DNA of 61,379 bases from a virus. The translations under genes were made by a program, and so were the position numbers. The notes under the pieces were generated by a model, which did not search any database, was not told where the DNA came from, and saw only the letters and a list, made by a program, of their open reading frames with translations. Shown in pieces: positions 13,808-34,900 of the stretch (position 1 is the first letter of the stretch; each line of letters opens with the position of its first letter). Location: positions 1 through 61,379 of the IMG/VR virus record IMGVR_UViG_3300036846_000573; one strand, written 5' to 3'.

Positions 13808-14481
13808 ATGGTATGAGAGAATTTGCGTGGAGCTACTCCAGGCTCAAATCGTTCGAGACCTGCCCGAAGCGACACCTTCATTACGATATATTGAAAGATA
13901 TAAAAGAACCTGAGACCGGGCAGATGGCCGAGGGCAACGCTGTCCATAAGGCGTTAGAACTTAGAATAAAGACGAAGCAAAAACTCCCCCTCGGGATGGG
14001 GCAGTACGAGGAGATTGCCTCCAAGCTCGAAACCCTGCCGGGTGAGATCTACACCGAGCAGAAACTCGCGCTGACCGAGGAGTTCAAACCCGTCGCGTTT
14101 TTTGGCAAGGGCGTGTGGTTCAGGACCGTCGTGGATTTTTGTAATGTGGAGGGGGAACGCGCGGCTGTCATCGACTACAAGACCGGCAAGCCGGCCGAGG
14201 ACAGGACGCAACTGCAATTATTATCGGCGACGGTGTTTCACCACCAGCCCGATGTCCAGCGCATCAGCGCCCGGCTGTTGTTTTTAAACCACGACCACGC
14301 GGAGCGTGCGCTGTTTATGCGCAATGATTTATCGGGGATATGGTCGAGCATGCTGCCGAGGGTGAAGAGATTACGCAAGGCTATGGAGGATCAGGAGTAC
14401 CCGCCTAAACCCAGCGGGTTGTGCCGGCGATACTGTGCCGTGGTCAGTTGCCCGTATCACGGAGTAGGATCAGCGCCATGA
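13804..14481 (+). CDS. Cas4/RecB-like PD-(D/E)XK nuclease
   Basis: 225 residues from the ATG overlapping the previous stop. The motif order of the RecB/Cas4 exonuclease group is present: SYSRLKSFETCPKR (10-23, first cysteine C20), EGNAVHKAL (43-51), VIDYKTGK (about 121-128, active-site D and K), then a Q-L-Q-L-L helix. The C-terminal cysteines C207, C211 and C217 with C20 could hold an iron-sulfur cluster as in Cas4. Role: end processing in phage recombination. Cas4-like genes are common in phage replication modules, so this alone does not imply CRISPR function. Confidence 0.85.
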   Translation: MNGMREFAWSYSRLKSFETCPKRHLHYDILKDIKEPETGQMAEGNAVHKALELRIKTKQKLPLGMGQYEEIASKLETLPGEIYTEQKLALTEEFKPVAFFGKGVWFRTVVDFCNVEGERAAVIDYKTGKPAEDRTQLQLLSATVFHHQPDVQRISARLLFLNHDHAERALFMRNDLSGIWSSMLPRVKRLRKAMEDQEYPPKPSGLCRRYCAVVSCPYHGVGSAP

Positions 14482-14759
14482 GTGTTATTAATAACAATGT
14501 TATTAGCAACAACGCCTATGCCGGTCAGTATTTCGATACCATCATCGCCAGCCAGCTTCCCGGTGATTTATTAAAACGTTTAGATCTTACAGCAGAAGTG
14601 ACGTCCGATCCGTATTTTCTAAAGACCGTACTAAGATTAACCAGTAAAAACCATGGTATAGACTTGACAATTGATCTCGAACCCTTACGTACTGGCAGCC
14701 GGGAGGCATGCCTTAAGGTGCCGGAGTTAATCATCACGCATCTGTGTGCCGTGAGATGA
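14478..14759 (+). CDS. Hypothetical protein, 93 aa
   Basis: Starts at the ATG in the ATGA overlap with the nuclease stop and ends in another ATGA overlap with the VRR-NUC-like gene, so the start is firm. N-terminus is Asn/Val-rich (MSVINNNVISNNAYAG). The rest is a beta-rich sequence with DLTIDLEPL. No motif recognised. The context between two nucleases suggests a recombination accessory. Confidence 0.55.
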   Translation: MSVINNNVISNNAYAGQYFDTIIASQLPGDLLKRLDLTAEVTSDPYFLKTVLRLTSKNHGIDLTIDLEPLRTGSREACLKVPELIITHLCAVR

Positions 14760-15067
14760 CACCCGAGAGTAAAATCAAGCGTGTCATCAGCACGCTGTTA
14801 AAATCTTATGGTCACGAGGTGTTTTATTATATGCCGGTGCCGACCGGGTACGGTGGGACCATCGTGGATTACGTAGGATTTTGCTGCGGGTTGGGGTTCG
14901 CCATCGAGGCCAAGGCGCCGGGTAGGAAGCCGACTGTCCGTCAGAAAGCGACGATGGAGAAAATCTCCGAGGCCGGCGCAAAAACTTTTATCATCGATGG
15001 ACCAAAGGGTGTCGGTGAGTTAGACGAGTGGCTGACCACTACCTGTCGTGAAAGCCGTAAATCGTGA
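14756..15067 (+). CDS. VRR-NUC-like PD-(D/E)XK nuclease
   Basis: 103 residues. Conserved VRR-NUC features: a helix ending before VDYVGFCCGLG (D38), the catalytic FAIEAKAPGRKPT (E51, K53) and an R-Q pair (62-63). Such stand-alone phage nucleases are structure-specific and may resolve branched DNA. The gene ends in the first units of the array at 15048: its last codons and stop codon form the first core and spacer. A CACTAC palindrome variant is at 15037-15050. Confidence 0.8.
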   Translation: MTPESKIKRVISTLLKSYGHEVFYYMPVPTGYGGTIVDYVGFCCGLGFAIEAKAPGRKPTVRQKATMEKISEAGAKTFIIDGPKGVGELDEWLTTTCRESRKS

Positions 15068-15939
15068 GAGCACCGAGATAAGGGAGCGAGCCGTAAGTCG
15101 TGAGAGTACCGATGTGGATGAGTGAGCCGAACGATGTGAGAGTACCGACCAAAGGGAGCGAGCCGCACCACAAGAGAGAACCGTCGAGATGAAGCGAGCC
15201 GCGAACGAAGAGAGAACCGTCTCTCGGGAGCGAACCGAGTTATGTGAGAGGACCGAGAGGTGCGAGTGAGCCGTGCGATATGAGAGAACCGTCGCTTGTG
15301 AGCGCAGCCGTACTGGCTGAGAGAACCGAGGTGAATGAGCGAGCCGTTGGTCACGAGAGTACCGAGCAAGAGGAGTGAGCCGAAGGTCGCGAGAGTACCG
15401 AGTAAGTCGAGTGAGCCGTGCTACCCGAGAGAACCGTGATGAACGAGCGAGCCGACGGTCACGAGAGTACCGAGGAAATCGAGCGGCTACTCGCTTGGGT
15501 GGCTGGTATTTGGCCCAGTCTGGAGGCGCAACTGCGCGCAGCCATAAGCCGAGTGTTACAAGAGAACCGAGATAGATGAGCGAGCCGGAACTGCTGAGAG
15601 TACCGTGTTGCCCGAGTGAGCCGAATGTATCGAGAGAGCCGTGAACCAAGAGCGAACCGAGTGCTGCGAGAGGACCGAAAATACGGAGTGAGCCGCATCA
15701 TCAGAGAGAACCGAAAGTTCTGAGTAAGCCGTGTACCAGGAGAGAACCGAAACCGCTGAGCGAGCCGTACGTCGTGAGAGAACCGAAAGTTCTGAGCGAG
15801 CCGTCCGTGATGAAAGAACCGAGGAATGCGAGCCGAGTGTCACGAGAGAACCGAGATCGTTGAGTGAGCCGACTACTAAGAGAGAACCGCACCGTATGAG
15901 TGAGCCGAGTTCACTGAGAGCACCGAAAGCGCTGAGCGT
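15048..15939 (+). repeat. Array 1: alternating 10-base cores with 8-base unique spacers
   Basis: About 45 cores with an 18-base period. Core A (GAGAGNACCG, N mostly A or T) and core B (GAGYGAGCCG) alternate without exception, so the true unit is 36 bases. Spacers are 8 bases and almost all different; only AAAGTTCT was seen twice. Length changes fall mainly in B cores (for example 11-base GAGCGCAGCCG and short GAGCCG). A 57-base unrelated island (15487-15543) interrupts it without breaking alternation. It begins at the VRR-NUC stop codon and ends with GAGCGT just before the helicase leader. Stops and single-base indels occur in all frames, so it is not a gene. Confidence 0.92.
15487..15543. 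other. Island inside array 1
   Basis: 57 bases without cores, replacing part of one B core. It contains short complementary segments TGGCTG and CAGCCA at its edges and GCGC-AACT-GCGC inside, so it may fold. Unlike the rest of the array it is not purine-skewed. Confidence 0.6.
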
Positions 15940-15964
15940 AATTTAACCAATGGAGCCCCCTAAA

Positions 15965-17536
15965 ATGTACGTCACGCAGGACACTCTGCATGTCGTTGTG
16001 CCATGGCGCGCCGACCTGCAGCAAGTCATCCCTCATGCGCGATCGTTTGTGTATAACAACGAGCGCATGCTGCTCGTACCCAACCGGCATGAGGAAGCCA
16101 AGGTCGCGAGAAATCTAGGCGTCCCGATACCAGCGCCCATACTTACACGTTACGACTGGCGCGGCGGCACGCCGTGGGATACTCAAAAAACCACGTCGGC
16201 AATGCTGACCGAATCACCCCGCGCCTATGTGCTCAACGAGTTTGGCACGGGTAAGACGCGGAGCGTGATATGGGCGGCCGACTATCTGCGGCGCAACCAA
16301 GCCATCGGCAAGGTCTTGATCGCCGCGCCGTTGAGCACACTCACACCGGTGTGGGAGACTGAGTTATTTAGGGTGATCCCCAATGCGCGGGTAAAAGTTT
16401 TACACGGCAACAAGGAGACGCGCCTCGAACGTCTGAACACTGATGCCGATTGGTTTATTATAAATCATCATGGGTTGGCATTGATCAAGGACGAACTGAT
16501 CAAGCGTGGTTTTGATGTGGTTGTGTTCGACGAGTTGGCGACGTTTCGTAATCGGTCGACCCAACTCTGGAAGACCGCCAATGAGATCATTCAAGGCGGC
16601 CCGGCTTACGCCAACAACCCTAAACCAAAATATGTCTGGGGATTGACCGGATCACCGACACCCAAGGCGCCGACCGATGCCTGGGGGCAAGTGAGATTGC
16701 TAACCCCGGAAAGAACCACGAAAAGCCTTACTCGGTTTCGCGATTTAACCATGCGCCAGATCACGAGCTTTAAATGGATCAAGCGCCCGGGAGCGATGGA
16801 CATCGTGCAGGAGGCGATGCAACCATCCGTTCGCTTCGCGTTGTCTGATGTTGTCGAGCTACCCGACACAACGTACCAGACGCGGGTGGTGGAGTTGGAG
16901 AGCGAAGCGCGTCGAGCCTATAAAATTATGTTCGATAAGATGAGAGTCCTAACCAATAACGGCGAGACAATCACCGCTGTCAACGAGGGTGTGCTGCAAT
17001 CTAAGTTACTACAGCTAGCGCTGGGTTATATCTACACCGATAAGCGTGGCGTCATGAAGCTTCCGAACGCGACGCGGTTGGAGGTAGTGAAAGAAATCGT
17101 CGAGGCGACATCGCGCAAGGTTATATGTTTTGTGCCATTCATTCACGCGCTCGAAGGCGTGGCGGAGTACTTACAGAAATACACGACGGTTGCGGTGGTG
17201 CACGGACAGACACCGGTGGGTGCGCGCAATAAAATTTTCCGCAGTTTTATGGAGCAATCAGAACCACATACGATCGTGGCGCATCCCGGGTGTATGTCAC
17301 ACGGCTTGACACTCACAGCGGCCAATACCATTGTGTGGGTTGGACCGACCAATTCATATGAAACGTACGAACAGGCTAACGCCAGGATCGTAAGGCCGGG
17401 TCAGGTGTCGAAGACGCTGATCGTGCATGTCGTTGCGACGCCTGTCGAGAAGCTGGCTTACAAGCGCCTGCAAGAGCGTGGGACATTTCAGGGCATGTTG
17501 TTGGAATTGTTCCGGCAACAGGAGTTAGAGTTTTAG
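15965..17536 (+). CDS. SF2/SNF2-type DNA helicase
   Basis: 523 residues. Motifs in order: GTGKT (94-98), AAPLSTL (motif Ia), VFDELATF (motif II, D-E at about 188-189), GLTGSP (motif III), SHGLTLT (motif V) and QANARIVRPGQ (motif VI, about 469-479). It lacks an obvious extra domain and matches the short SNF2-like helicases of phage replication modules. The ATG at 15965 is preferred because the upstream ATGGAGC at 15950 is the ribosome-site box seen before many genes here. The gene lies exactly between the two 18-base-period arrays, and its stop codon TAG is part of the first core of array 2. Confidence 0.9.
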   Translation: MYVTQDTLHVVVPWRADLQQVIPHARSFVYNNERMLLVPNRHEEAKVARNLGVPIPAPILTRYDWRGGTPWDTQKTTSAMLTESPRAYVLNEFGTGKTRSVIWAADYLRRNQAIGKVLIAAPLSTLTPVWETELFRVIPNARVKVLHGNKETRLERLNTDADWFIINHHGLALIKDELIKRGFDVVVFDELATFRNRSTQLWKTANEIIQGGPAYANNPKPKYVWGLTGSPTPKAPTDAWGQVRLLTPERTTKSLTRFRDLTMRQITSFKWIKRPGAMDIVQEAMQPSVRFALSDVVELPDTTYQTRVVELESEARRAYKIMFDKMRVLTNNGETITAVNEGVLQSKLLQLALGYIYTDKRGVMKLPNATRLEVVKEIVEATSRKVICFVPFIHALEGVAEYLQKYTTVAVVHGQTPVGARNKIFRSFMEQSEPHTIVAHPGCMSHGLTLTAANTIVWVGPTNSYETYEQANARIVRPGQVSKTLIVHVVATPVEKLAYKRLQERGTFQGMLLELFRQQELEF

Positions 17537-18306
17537 CCGCTTTGTCGGAGAGTGCCGAGTACCGTGAGCGAGCGAGCCGTTCCAAAGGAGAGGGCCGTAT
17601 GGGATGAGCGAGCCGTCAGGGCATGAGAGTACCGGATAGAATGAGCGGGCCGATTGTGATGTGAGCACCGTCAGTATCGAGCGAGCCGTTTGGTCTGAGA
17701 GTACCGAGAGTTGTGAGCGAGCCGGCAGCGAGGAGAGGACCGATCGTCTAGAGCGAGCCGTGCCGGAAGAGAGCGCCGTCTACGAGGAGTGAGCCGCCCA
17801 TCATGAGAGAACCGAGTAGCACGAGCGAGCCGGGCTGTGTGAGAGCACCGATTTGAGGAGTGAGCCGAGAAACAGGAGAGAACCGAAGTAGATGAGTGAG
17901 CCGAAGAACCGGAGAGAACCGGTGAGCAAGAGCGAGCCGAAGAACAAGAGAGAACCGCGCCCGTTGAGTGAGCCGAAGTGCATGAGAGTACCGCGTCCGA
18001 CGAGCGAGCCGCTCGACCTGAGAGAACCGTGGACGAAGAGTGAGAGGCGAGCCGAAACTAGCGAGAGAGCCGAGAGAGTTGAGCAAATGAGTGAGCCGGT
18101 CAACGTGAGAGAACCGTATGAAGTGAGCGAGCCGGCCCGTATGAGAGAACCGTAGGCGGGGAGCGAGCCGAGGAAGATGGAGAGAACCGCACAGCTAGAG
18201 CGAGCCGCCCGCCATGAGAGAACCATCCGCCAAGAGTGAGCCGCCAAGTATGAGAGTACCGTGATGCGTGAGCGAGCCGTTTGATATGAGAGTACCGTCT
18301 CGCCTG
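17535..18306 (+). repeat. Array 2: second alternating-core array
   Basis: About 41 cores with the same 10+8 base design and strict A/B alternation as array 1. First core AGCCG overlaps the helicase stop. Last unit is GAGAGTACCG, eight bases, GAGTGT. The common variants are GAGAGAACCG (A) and GAGCGAGCCG (B). Insertions of 4, 7 and 8 bases occur in three B cores (near 17567, 18038 and 18081). Spacers are again essentially unique and I found none shared with array 1. Followed by a short AT-rich leader and GGAGCTACC before the gene at 18351. Confidence 0.92.
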
Positions 18307-18350
18307 AGTGTAAATTTTAACTTATCAATCTTAACTTAGGAGCTACCACA

Positions 18351-19346
18351 ATGAGCGACGATGTTACGCCGAGCACATCAACCACACCCACGCCGATCAC
18401 GATGCGCGAGGCGCTCGACGAGCTAACGTTTATCGAGAGATTGACCAAGCGCGACATGGACGCGGCCAAGCTGCTGGGCGAGGCCGAGGTCAGATATCTC
18501 GTAGACGCGTACTATATAGCACAAGAGGATCGAAAGCGCACCGCTGCCCAGGTCCGCGCGCTGACGACGATCACCGAGGCGCACCCCCACGCCGAGCCGA
18601 GCATCATCGTCAACTGGCTGCGCAGCCAGAACGACACGATCGAGGGGCAGATCAAGCGAGTTCTCGATGCGTATACACAACAGCATATCATGGGGCCGTG
18701 GATGCGCGACGTGTTTGGCATCGGCCCGGTGCTGAGCGCGGGTCTTCTCGCGCATATCTATATGGGCCTATGGTGCGCCGTCTGTCACGGTCACGACGAA
18801 GAAGACTGCCAGCGTCGGCAGAATAACCCTAAGCTTAAGCTATCAGAACATACGTACCAGCCGGTCGAGAGCCTCCCGACAGTCGGTCATATCTGGGCAT
18901 TTGCGGGAATTGCCGGCAAGGATCAGAAGCCTTGGGGCAAGAACCAAAAGCGGCCCTACAATGCCAAGCTGAAAGTCTTGCAGTGGAAGGTCGGGCAGTC
19001 GTTTATGTGGTTCAGCTATAACGGCAAGTGCTACTATGGTCAGGAGTACCGCCGCCGCAAAGAGTACGAGATCGCGCGCAACGTGCCCGGCGGCTGGAAC
19101 GCAGCGGAAGTCGAGCGCCGGCTGAACGACAAGATGCGTAAGCCGACAGAGGATGCGATGAAGTATTTATCCCAGGGCATCCTGCCACCAGCGGCGATGG
19201 ATGGCAGGGCCAGACGTTACGCCACTAAGAAGTTCCTAGCGCATATGCATAATGTGTGGTTCGAGAAAAAGTTTGGCCGTCCTGCGCCGCTGCCCTACCC
19301 GATCGATATACTCGGCCACGCGCATTACGAGCCACCGCCTGTCTAA
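18351..19346 (+). CDS. Transposase_20-like helix-hairpin-helix protein
   Basis: 331 residues. The N-terminal 120 are helical (EVRYLVDAYYIAQEDRKRTAAQVRAL in outline). Then GIGPVLSAGLLAHI (about 124-137) is a helix-hairpin-helix of the kind in the C-terminal domain of IS110 transposases, followed by IWAFAGIAG and a GKNQKRPYNAKLK segment. The IS110 RuvC-like N-terminal domain is absent, so it is not a standard transposase. Related stand-alone proteins occur in other phages, usually without function. Two Cys/His pairs (CAVCHGHDEEDC) may bind zinc. It directly follows array 2, which is the only hint at a partner. Confidence 0.6.
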   Translation: MSDDVTPSTSTTPTPITMREALDELTFIERLTKRDMDAAKLLGEAEVRYLVDAYYIAQEDRKRTAAQVRALTTITEAHPHAEPSIIVNWLRSQNDTIEGQIKRVLDAYTQQHIMGPWMRDVFGIGPVLSAGLLAHIYMGLWCAVCHGHDEEDCQRRQNNPKLKLSEHTYQPVESLPTVGHIWAFAGIAGKDQKPWGKNQKRPYNAKLKVLQWKVGQSFMWFSYNGKCYYGQEYRRRKEYEIARNVPGGWNAAEVERRLNDKMRKPTEDAMKYLSQGILPPAAMDGRARRYATKKFLAHMHNVWFEKKFGRPAPLPYPIDILGHAHYEPPPV

Positions 19347-31902: not shown

Positions 31903-34900
31903 TCAGCGTGCCTGCAGTTGGTCGCGCGTGACGCGCCGTGGCATGCCGATGGCTGGTGGGTTGAACACGACCGGCGCCTGCGGCTGAACCACCGGGCGCT
32001 GCGGCATCTGGATGTTGGGAACCTGACGCGGGCCGGTCGGCGGCGGGTTCGCCGCTAAAGCCCTCTCGACCTCTGGGATAGCGGTGCCACGCAGCGACTG
32101 CGGTGACAGATAAGCGCGCGGATGACCACTTGGGTCGAGCACGGTAAAGCCTGTCGTCCTGCCCTGAGCATCAACCAAGGGCGCCAGCTTCATCGTCGTA
32201 ACAGGATTACCCGGTGTCGACTCCTTGGTCTGGGACACGAGACCCTTAGTCAATGTCTTGGCCTGATCCACCGTTTGCTCGGTGTTGTTCATGCGCAGTG
32301 CTTTATAGATCTGCTTGGAGCGGTCTAGCTGCTCCTGGTCCCAGGTAGATCCATTCTCGTTGGTGAGCGGGTTCTTCGAGCTAGGATCGAAAATACCCTG
32401 CTCCAGTATTTCTTTGTCGGCAGCCGCAGCGGCGCGCGCCTGGGTCTCTTGCTGCGCCCCCAGCCGGGCATTTGTTGTCTCGATGTTTGCCTGTACCCGC
32501 TGCGCTGCGTCATAGAGCGAGATTTGATGCTGCTCTGCGGCACGCCGATTGGCTTCGGTTTGCTGCACGCCGACCCGCTGCGCTTCGGCTTGCACCGTCT
32601 GATTGGCGTGAGCCGTCTCGAACTCCAGCTTCTGCCGCGCCTGGGCTTCCAGCATCTGGTTGTGGACGATCTCTTCGTTGGTCTTTTTCTCCTTGTCGAC
32701 CATTTCGGCCCACTTCACCGGATCGGCGACGATCCGCATATTGTCCATCAGGTTTTGCTGAGTGACTTGAAACGGCCCGCCCATCGGCTGATGGGTCACT
32801 TCGCTGTAGCGCTGCCCATATACTTTGTCGTCCGAGACACCGAACTTGATAAAGGCGCCGTCCTCGACAAAGGCATGGCTGCGCGCCAGGAAGTAGGTCG
32901 CGGCGCTCCAGTCCTTGGCGCCCATCGCGCCATAAGCACGCTTCAAATCGTCAAAGCTTCCGGCGTGCTGCTCGCGCGTCAGCAACTCGATGGCGGCGCC
33001 GGCTGCCCCCCAGTTGTCGGTCAACGCCGCCTTGCGGTAGATCGCCAGCCTAAGCGCGGCAAAGCCGTTGCTGGGTGTCGTGTTCGACGGCGCGGCGTCA
33101 TAGGTGACGTAGCTCAGAAGCCCGACCGGGCCACCGGCTTTGGTCGCCGCCATGGCGGCGTCCGGGTCGGCGGTGCCGGGCTTGCTGTTATTATCCAGCG
33201 AGTTCGTTGGGCCGGCTGGCGCCGGCGCTGGCGCGCCGGGAACGACCGATGTACCAGGACCGGGCACGCCACCCGGTGGCGGCGGCACGGCTTCTGCCGG
33301 TGTCCCCGCTGCCGCGCGCGGCGCTGGGGGCGTGCCGGGCGGTGGTGTCGGCGGCGGCGCGGTTGGCGCTGTCGCTTCGGCTGGCGTCCGTGCCTGCGGT
33401 GTCGTCTCACTACCGGTAGTGACCGGTTTTGCTGGCGGAATGACCGTTGGCGGAACGACAAGACCTTCTTGTATATTTCGCGCGCCTTCAGCCGCAGCCT
33501 GTGCTGCCTGCGCCCCCGGCAAACCTTCGGGCTGCACCGTGATAGCTGGCAGCGCATTACCGATAGCTCGACCGATGGCTCGACCAAGCGAGCCATACTC
33601 AGGCGCCGGTGTGCCGGTTGGTTGGAGCCCGCCCGGAGGCTCAGGCTCGCCGGTCTCAGGATTGACGACTGTACCGGGTGGGTAAGCGCGCGCCCGGCCT
33701 TGCCCTTGCAGAACCGGCGGTGGTCCCGGTAAAGGCGGTGGCACTGCCGGCGCAGCTTGCGGCGGCACGACAGTCGGCGGCACGACCAGTTCGCGAGCGC
33801 CGCCGGGGCCACTGACAGGACCGCGAACCCCGCCTAGATCCGGCGGCGGTGGCGGCGACACGGTGTACGGCACCGTCGGTGGAACAACAACGTCACGCGC
33901 ACCGCCGGGGCCGCTGACAGGACCACGAACACCGCCCTGATCCACTGGCGGTGGCGGCGACACGGTGTACGGCACCGTCGGCGGTACAGTCAGTTCACGC
34001 GCATCGGCGCGGGCGCCGATAATGCCGCCGCCTTCCTGCGGTGTTCCGGTAACCGTCGGCAGACCGGCGCTTGTCACCGCGCCTTCGGGCGGCGGCTCCT
34101 CTTCTTCCGGCTTGCGCCCCATAAACGCATCGATGAATTTCCACACCCCCGGCGCGTTGGCGAGGGCGATCTCGTGCGACGCGTCGGGCCGCTGCAGCAT
34201 GCGCTTGACCACATCGGGTCCGGCATAAAATGCCGCGACGGCATTTTTAGAACCGCGCCCGAACTCGTCTTCCGCCTCCTTCCACTTGAGCGCCCCCATG
34301 TAGAGGTTCTGAATGGGGTTATTAATATCTAACGTTTGTTTAGGGTCGATGCGCTTCTGCTCGTCGGGGCTGATCGCAAAGTAACCAACCCGACCGTCCT
34401 CGTCTTTGTAGCTAGGGTCGGTATCGCTAGATAATTTTATAAGCTGCGCCAAATCGATCGGCGACACGCCGACATCGGTACCAACTTTATTCAGCGCGTC
34501 GTACAATGCCGGGTCGTTGCTGCGTAAATCCTTATAGGTTTCCGCCGGCACCGGGATGCGGGGTTGCTTTATCGGGAACGGCGCCTGCTCGCCGATCGCC
34601 GAGCGCGAACCGGGTGTGCCACGAAACACCACCGGCGGCGCCGGCGCTGGCTCGCCGGGAGGTTTCTCCTCGGGAGCCTGCATCTCCCGCGTCATCGGTG
34701 TCGTCGGCGGCATCGCCGCAGGCGATGGCTGATCGCCAACTTCATCGGGTTTTACCGAGCCGGTCAGCGACGTCGCACCGATAGCCGGTTGAGGTTGAGC
34801 CGGTATCTGCGACGGGGTCAGGACCGGCGCCTCAGTAGTTGGCTCTGGCGTCGCTGGCGTCGCTGGCGCGCTGGGGCCGCTTACGGCTGTATCTTCAGTA

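What the first reader, a model, noticed from the sequence alone, without database searches (positions are those of the whole stretch)
15048..15939. An 18-base-period array of alternating conserved cores and unique 8-base spacers
Seen directly: about 45 ten-base cores of two types alternate strictly (GAGAGNACCG, GAGYGAGCCG), each followed by eight bases that are almost never repeated. Core conservation with spacer diversity is the logic of a binding-site or guide array, but the units are far shorter than CRISPR repeats. If the array grew by tandem duplication the spacers should appear in duplicated blocks; they do not, so cores are held by selection while spacers diverge or are replaced. It begins at the stop codon of a VRR-NUC-like gene and ends just before the helicase leader. 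Stops and indels in all frames argue against a protein. I know of no named element with this structure. Possible roles: scaffold for a phage nucleoprotein, decoy for a host factor, or an RNA processed into 18-nt pieces.
Basis: partly seen in the sequence, partly recalled or inferred. Interest (0 to 1): 0.93.

Follow-up and report, generated by a model that had tools for sequence, protein, structure and literature searches.

The report
Phage guide-RNA array (TIGR-TasA system)
The odd 18-base array is a guide-RNA bank of the recently described TIGR-Tas kind: a phage stores about 43 pairs of 8-letter guides in two arrays next to the gene for the protein (TasA) that should load them and seek matching DNA, so it is a new example of a known system rather than a new one.

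Summary
In detail: about 45 ten-base cores of two alternating types, 18-nt period, at 15048-15939. That gene's family matches TasR and TasH in sequence (E 4e-27, 1e-14) and in predicted fold (top 11 PDB hits all TasH/TasR). The array meets the published description of a TIGR array: alternating edge (GAGYGAGCCG) and loop (GAGAGNACCG) repeats, 36-nt unit, dual spacers, truncated edge repeat at both ends, tas gene nearby. Searching IMG/VR by protein alone, 75 of 80 tas loci carried such an array. Edge-repeat positions that should pair inside one mature tigRNA do so in 806 of 809 cases, with A-U replacing G-C in 12 loci including this phage. It is a TIGR-TasA system: a new member of a known kind. 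New data concern evolution: phages with 90-95% identical TasA share a median of 10% of spacers, units change mainly as whole edge-A-loop-B blocks, and diverged duplicate spacers recur at whole-unit distances. No targets were found: predicted 16-nt targets are not enriched in the own genome or in 2.95 Mb of TIGR-phage DNA. TasA's role stays open.

The parts
15048..15939 (+). TIGR array 1: about 22 edge-A-loop-B units, 8-nt spacers, 10-nt repeats. The first, degenerate edge repeat (GTGAAAGCCG, 15048-15057) lies in the last codons of the VRR-NUC gene; the last edge repeat is truncated (GAGCG, 15934-15938).
   Evidence: array anatomy as in PMC12045711
15486..15559 (+). Unrelated stretch interrupting array 1 after a truncated edge repeat at 15481; no stronger fold than shuffles
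17530..18310 (+). TIGR array 2: about 21 units. The first edge repeat is truncated and contains the helicase stop codon (TAG at 17534-17536, then CCG); it ends with truncated edge GAGTG at 18306-18310.
18351..19346 (+). TasA: 331-aa solo Nop-domain protein (PHROG_4285 'transposase'), no nuclease domain
14756..15067 (+). VRR-NUC-like nuclease gene upstream of array 1 (context, not part of the system)
   Evidence: (phrog_93 endonuclease, E 4e-10)
15950..17536 (+). SNF2-type helicase gene between the two arrays (context)

Best explanation
The array is a TIGR (Tandem Interspaced Guide RNA) array of a phage TIGR-TasA system; the window carries two arrays and the tasA gene. Shown here: GAGYGAGCCG is the edge repeat and GAGAGNACCG the loop repeat; the spacers are 8 nt; the neighbouring 331-aa protein is a Nop-domain protein of the TasR/TasH kind without a nuclease domain; covariation shows that the RNA unit runs from the second half of one edge repeat, through spacer A, the loop repeat and spacer B, to the first half of the next edge repeat. 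Inferred from the characterised relatives (TasA, TasR, TasH in PMC12045711): the array is transcribed with the replication operon; TasA binds it and a host RNase cuts it in the edge repeats into about 43 different 36-nt tigRNAs; a TasA dimer holds one tigRNA, and spacers A and B pair with opposite strands of a double-stranded DNA target about 16 bp long, opening and bending it without cutting. Most likely role (my inference, about 50%): blocking transcription or replication of particular DNA, either host genes or competing elements, during infection.
For: Protein: family profile hits PDB TasR 9mty (E 4.3e-27), TasH 21kl (1e-14) and IS621 (3.9e-7); Pfam PF02371 in 36 of 45 members; AF2 model pLDDT 88.6, pTM 0.83; all top 11 PDB fold hits are TasH/TasR, E 8e-7 to 9e-4; no HNH or RuvC domain called above cut-off. 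Association: tas family in 36 of 43 array contigs; of 7 helicase relatives lacking this core only one has it, and that one has its own variant array on both sides of the gene; 75 of 80 loci found by protein alone carry a dual-repeat array, 69 of them at exactly 36 nt. Array anatomy: 36-nt unit, 99% strict alternation (3361 of 3391 adjacent cores); truncated edge repeat at both ends; core letters change together in edge and loop across systems, CCG, CCA or CCC in both. RNA level: position 7 of one edge repeat against position 4 of the next is G-C 464, G-U 16, A-U 14, mismatch 0 (Fisher p 3e-19); both control pairings contain mismatches; with relaxed edges 806 of 809 pair and A-U is seen in 12 loci; in the window, A7 edges at 15228 and 15650 are each followed by T4 edges at 15264 and 15686. 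Array RNA has no fold of its own, z -0.23, as the paper says of TIGR arrays.
Against: No RNA data: transcription, 36-nt processing and TasA binding are not shown for this phage. No target found: predicted targets are not enriched over shuffled spacer pairs in 2.95 Mb of TIGR-phage DNA or in the own contig. Array 1 lies one gene away from tasA, and no intrinsic terminator was recognised after either array in this window. Core conservation in loci L009-L127 is partly built in, because they were found by the core pattern; the protein-only search does not have this bias.
Confidence: 0.94

Rival explanations
1. The array is a DNA-level binding array (centromere or iteron type) for a phage protein such as TasA itself, with no RNA guide function.
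For: Regular spacing, conserved cores, variable spacers, and core letters that change together with the protein family would also fit a DNA-binding protein.
Against: Mismatch-free compensatory pairing between an edge repeat and the next one, but not in the opposite direction or within one repeat, is expected of an RNA unit, not of duplex DNA sites. Arrays mostly run in the direction of flanking genes and sit between stop codon and ribosome-binding site. The protein is of a family whose members bind tigRNA in solved structures.
Confidence: 0.03
2. Degenerate coding repeat: a six-residue protein repeat (SEPxxxREPxxx) fallen into pseudogenes.
For: 18 nt is six codons; short open stretches such as 17892-18155 (87 aa) exist.
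Against: Stops in all frames, 11-19 per frame in array 1; frame-changing indels; a TGA stop arises inside edge repeats with T at position 4; arrays begin at stop codons of neighbouring genes in dozens of phages.
Confidence: 0.01
3. TIGR-TasA array, but now inactive: a relic without expressed guides.
For: Array 1 is interrupted by about 74 unrelated bases and both arrays have some broken units.
Against: Intact TasA with conserved residues, most cores exact, compensatory pairs kept in the window itself, and fast unit turnover in relatives point to active use.
Confidence: 0.06

Closest known systems
TIGR-TasA dual-repeat systems (e.g. FpTIGR, Flavonifractor plautii; PMC12045711)
   Same: Solo Nop protein, alternating edge and loop repeats, dual spacers, 36-nt unit, truncated terminal edge repeats, arrays up- and/or downstream of tas, often in tailed phages
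   Different: Repeats are GAGYGAGCCG/GAGAGNACCG with 8-nt spacers (FpTIGR spacers total 18 nt, i.e. 9 each). Two long arrays (about 22 and 21 units against 'most often 5 to 15'), one of them a gene away from tasA, upstream of a helicase
TIGR-TasH (Salicola phage CGphi29, PMC12045711; TasH structures PDB 21kl, 9vzx, 9w02)
   Same: Closest solved fold to the window protein; 8-nt spacers (16 nt in all)
   Different: TasH has an N-terminal HNH nuclease; none is called in the window protein
IS110-family transposases with bridge RNA (IS621, PDB 8wt6)
   Same: Shared Nop/Transposase_20 domain, guide RNA with two pairing stretches
   Different: No DEDD/RuvC domain, no insertion element; array instead of a single bridge RNA
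CRISPR arrays
   Same: Conserved repeats and unique spacers read out as guides
   Different: Two alternating 10-nt repeats, 8-nt spacers, no adaptation genes seen, targets read on both strands

Membership tests
TIGR-Tas (dual-repeat) | Two distinct alternating 8-12-nt repeats with about 9-nt (8-12) spacers | tested here: met
   10-nt repeats, 8-nt spacers, 39 of 40 18-nt steps alternate in array 1 and 33 of 34 in array 2
TIGR-Tas (dual-repeat) | tas gene encoding a Nop-domain protein beside the array | tested here: met
   18351-19346 starts 40 bases after array 2; profile and fold match TasR/TasH
TIGR-Tas (dual-repeat) | Array begins with 5'-truncated and ends with 3'-truncated edge repeat | tested here: met
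   Array 2 start TTTTAGCCG and end GAGTG; array 1 start GTGAAAGCCG and end GAGCG; same in relatives
TIGR-Tas (dual-repeat) | Box C/D letters covary between edge and loop repeats across systems | tested here: met
   Final base of the repeat is G, A or C in both repeats of most systems; GCGCGAGCCC/GCGANAACCC in L146
TIGR-Tas (dual-repeat) | Extra base pair between the two edge halves of one tigRNA, G-C, G-U or A-U | tested here: met
   494 of 494 strict and 806 of 809 relaxed cases pair
TIGR-Tas (dual-repeat) | Rho-independent terminator after the array | tested here: inconclusive
   None recognised after either array in the window; visible hairpin plus T-run after one array of L146
TIGR-Tas (dual-repeat) | Processed into 36-nt tigRNA bound by Tas | not testable with these tools
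   needs RNA sequencing
TIGR-Tas (dual-repeat) | RNA-guided DNA binding by tandem spacers | not testable with these tools
   in silico target search gave no enrichment, which neither confirms nor excludes it
TasA subtype | No HNH or RuvC nuclease domain | tested here: met
   No nuclease family in Pfam for the window protein; the long coiled-coil helices begin at about residue 44, leaving no room for a nuclease domain
IS110 transposase | N-terminal DEDD/RuvC domain | tested here: not met
   Profile positions 30-137 match only residues 129-239 of IS621; no N-terminal domain present
CRISPR array | Single repeat type of about 25-36 nt with cas genes | tested here: not met
   10-nt dual repeats; neighbouring genes are exonuclease, VRR-NUC, helicase, Gam-like, primase

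The most novel reading that the evidence does not exclude
TasA arrays of phages are fast-evolving guide banks that change without any adaptation machinery: whole 36-nt units are duplicated, lost and swapped, and spacer letters then drift; and they act by RNA-guided, cleavage-free silencing of DNA outside the TIGR phages sampled here (for example host genes). The first half is supported; the targets are unknown.
Probability: 0.35. Interest if true: 0.75.

Novelty: new member of a known kind. Interest (0 to 1): 0.45.

Why it matters
TIGR-Tas was described only in 2025 and its authors list three open points: what the spacers target, how arrays grow, and what nuclease-free TasA does. This phage and the relatives assembled here (some 200 arrays, most with a known tasA) give a natural series in which array growth can be measured: turnover by whole units, diverged duplicates at 36- and 72-nt steps, and near-complete spacer replacement while TasA stays over 90% identical. 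That narrows the spacer-origin question and gives a clear negative on self-targeting and on targeting of TIGR-carrying relatives.

Tried and rejected
Rfam scan of 14400-18400: nothing of note (one sub-threshold pan-motif match inside the helicase).

Blastn of array 2 against phage and plasmid records: no match; the array cannot be found by ordinary similarity because spacers differ.

tblastn of TasA against cultured phages: no match at E 1e-5.

Pattern search of 84,980 species genomes: 11 stretches, about the number expected by chance for so short a pattern except one MAG contig (L135) with several cores. The element is a viral one.

Helicase relatives, to see whether the array is an old part of the operon: rejected, relatives at 63-73% identity lack it.

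First target screen (1.9 Mb) gave a slight excess of exact A plus reverse-complement-B matches. It vanished with more sequence, masking of arrays and 60 shuffles: 6 observed against 3.7 +/- 2.1.

Own-genome targets: best scores of own units equal those of foreign units.

Guides shared between unrelated phages as a sign of a common target: none convincing.

Protein-repeat, iteron and centromere readings: see rivals.

Full report
WHAT IS THERE. The array at 15048-15939 is real and its edges are as given. It has 46 core-like positions; 40 steps are exactly 18 nt and 39 of these alternate between GAGAGNACCG and GAGYGAGCCG. In the whole window the core-N8-core pattern occurs 61 times on + and never in shuffles. 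Between the two lies an SNF2-type helicase gene (15950-17536), and 40 bases after array 2 starts a 331-aa gene (18351-19346).

THE ARRAY IS COMMON IN UNCULTIVATED VIRUSES. Most IMG/VR loci hold long arrays, several per contig. Spacer letters are close to random apart from a weak A/T preference right after CCG. Strict alternation holds in 3361 of 3391 adjacent pairs. Arrays often start at the stop codon of the gene before, which is often inside the first, truncated repeat (..TAG|CCG or TGA|GCCG), and end in a truncated GAGCG that often serves as the ribosome-binding site of the next gene.

THE PARTNER GENE. The 331-aa protein belongs to PHROG_4285, named 'transposase'. A family profile finds 93 members in the loci fetched. 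The gene is present in 36 of 43 array contigs. Of seven helicase relatives without this core, one has the gene, and it has an array on each side with another core pair, GCGCGAGCCC and GCGANAACCC, again every 18 nt. Searching IMG/VR with the protein alone, 75 of 80 loci showed an array of about 36-nt period (69 at exactly 36) beside the gene, with repeats ending in CCG, CCA, TCA or CCC. Gene and array are one system.

IDENTITY. The family profile matches the PDB sequences of TasR (9mty, E 4.3e-27), TasH (21kl, 1e-14) and the IS621 transposase (8wt6, 3.9e-7), and Pfam Transposase_20 is matched by 36 of 45 members. The predicted structure (pLDDT 88.6) has TasH and TasR as its first eleven PDB matches, followed by IS110 transposases and then only noise. 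The paper that describes them (Faure et al. 2025, PMC12045711) defines TIGR arrays as two alternating 8-12-nt repeats with spacers mostly of 9 nt, a truncated edge repeat at each end, next to tas genes; TasA is the form without a nuclease. All testable features are met except the terminator, which was not recognised in this window.

RNA EVIDENCE. In the TasR structure one extra pair joins the two edge halves of a mature tigRNA. That predicts pairing of position 7 of an edge repeat with position 4 of the next one. Observed: G-C 464, G-U 16, A-U 14, no mismatch (p 3e-19); the same positions taken within one repeat or in the opposite direction do mismatch. With relaxed edges 806 of 809 pair, and A-U is seen in 12 loci. 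The window itself has two such compensated units: 15228 with 15264, and 15650 with 15686. This fixes the RNA unit as edge-A-loop-B-edge, 36 nt, and argues for function at the RNA level. Sequences are related, so the cases are not independent, but the controls share that relatedness. The array has no fold of its own (z -0.23).

GAIN OF THE SYSTEM. In relatives with helicases 63-73% identical (L128, L129, L132, L133) the VRR-NUC and helicase genes lie close together and neither the arrays nor tasA are present. In L129 the gam-like match starts about 30 bases after the helicase end. The window phage, or its lineage, thus gained array 1 at one gene junction and array 2 with tasA at the next, or the relatives lost them.

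HOW SPACERS CHANGE. Among phages with TasA 90-95% identical the median share of common spacers is 10%. Where arrays partly agree, the change from shared to unshared falls between units more often (195 of 246) than inside a unit (93 of 166), and aligned arrays show shared A-B pairs separated by gained or lost units anywhere in the array, not at one end. Within arrays, same-type spacers at even distances are alike at 7 or more of 8 positions in 0.4-1.0% of pairs against 0.06% between arrays. So arrays grow at least partly by duplication of whole units followed by quick spacer change. The pairs of phages are not independent, so these are descriptive figures.

TARGETS. From the published cleavage geometry (8-nt 3' overhangs, cut 5' to the nucleotide pairing the fifth spacer base) I derive the target as spacer A followed by the reverse complement of spacer B, with 0-2 bases between. 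In 2.95 Mb of TIGR-phage DNA with arrays masked, exact matches are 6, 4 and 5 for gaps 0, 1 and 2, against 3.7, 3.6 and 3.9 for re-paired spacers. In the own genome, own units do no better than foreign ones. The guides thus do not visibly aim at their own genome or at TIGR-bearing relatives. The unit extraction was loose (some units out of phase were included), which dilutes but would not hide a strong signal. Host DNA was not tested, because the host is not known.

MECHANISM, WITH GRADES. Shown: two-component gene-array system, RNA-level pairing, Tas fold. Inferred from characterised relatives: co-transcription, processing by a host RNase into 36-nt tigRNAs, binding of both strands of a target by a TasA dimer. 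Guess: transcription or replication block of host or competing DNA; the paper proposes the same among others.

VERDICT. A correct and sharp observation of a real guide array, but of a kind described in 2025. Its interest now lies in the evolutionary series around it and in the still unknown targets.

Noticed in passing
window 15486-15559: About 74 unrelated bases interrupt array 1 directly after a truncated edge repeat (GAGCG), as if two arrays had been joined; no stronger fold than shuffles.
   Followed up: partly
L128 7572-8456; L132 7610-8917; window 17530-19346: The junction between the helicase and the Gam-like gene holds different genes in related phages (TasA with array here, other ORFs in L128 and L132, nothing in L129): a variable cargo site.
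   Followed up: partly
L242-L243 (G003), L245 (G025), L246 (G015): Some TIGR phage contigs carry 5-7 arrays with 95-140 cores, taking up 9-11% of the sequence, all on one strand.
   Followed up: partly
ends of arrays in L040, L067, L084, L011: Arrays there are followed by a long inverted repeat directly before the next ATG (e.g. GGTGGGGAGCATA...TATGCTTCCCACC in L067), perhaps an operator or an RNA structure.
   Followed up: no
L146 upstream of 8388 (-): Array with core pair GCGCGAGCCC/GCGANAACCC is followed by a strong hairpin and T-run, a likely terminator, before the tas gene.
   Followed up: no
window 33773-34003: Tandem repeat of 102 bases, 2.3 copies, in the part of the phage outside this study.
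   Followed up: no
L084, L104, L009, L060, L119: Some Tas family members are 350-422 aa by the start codons assumed here, with extra N-terminal sequence that may be a further domain.
   Followed up: no
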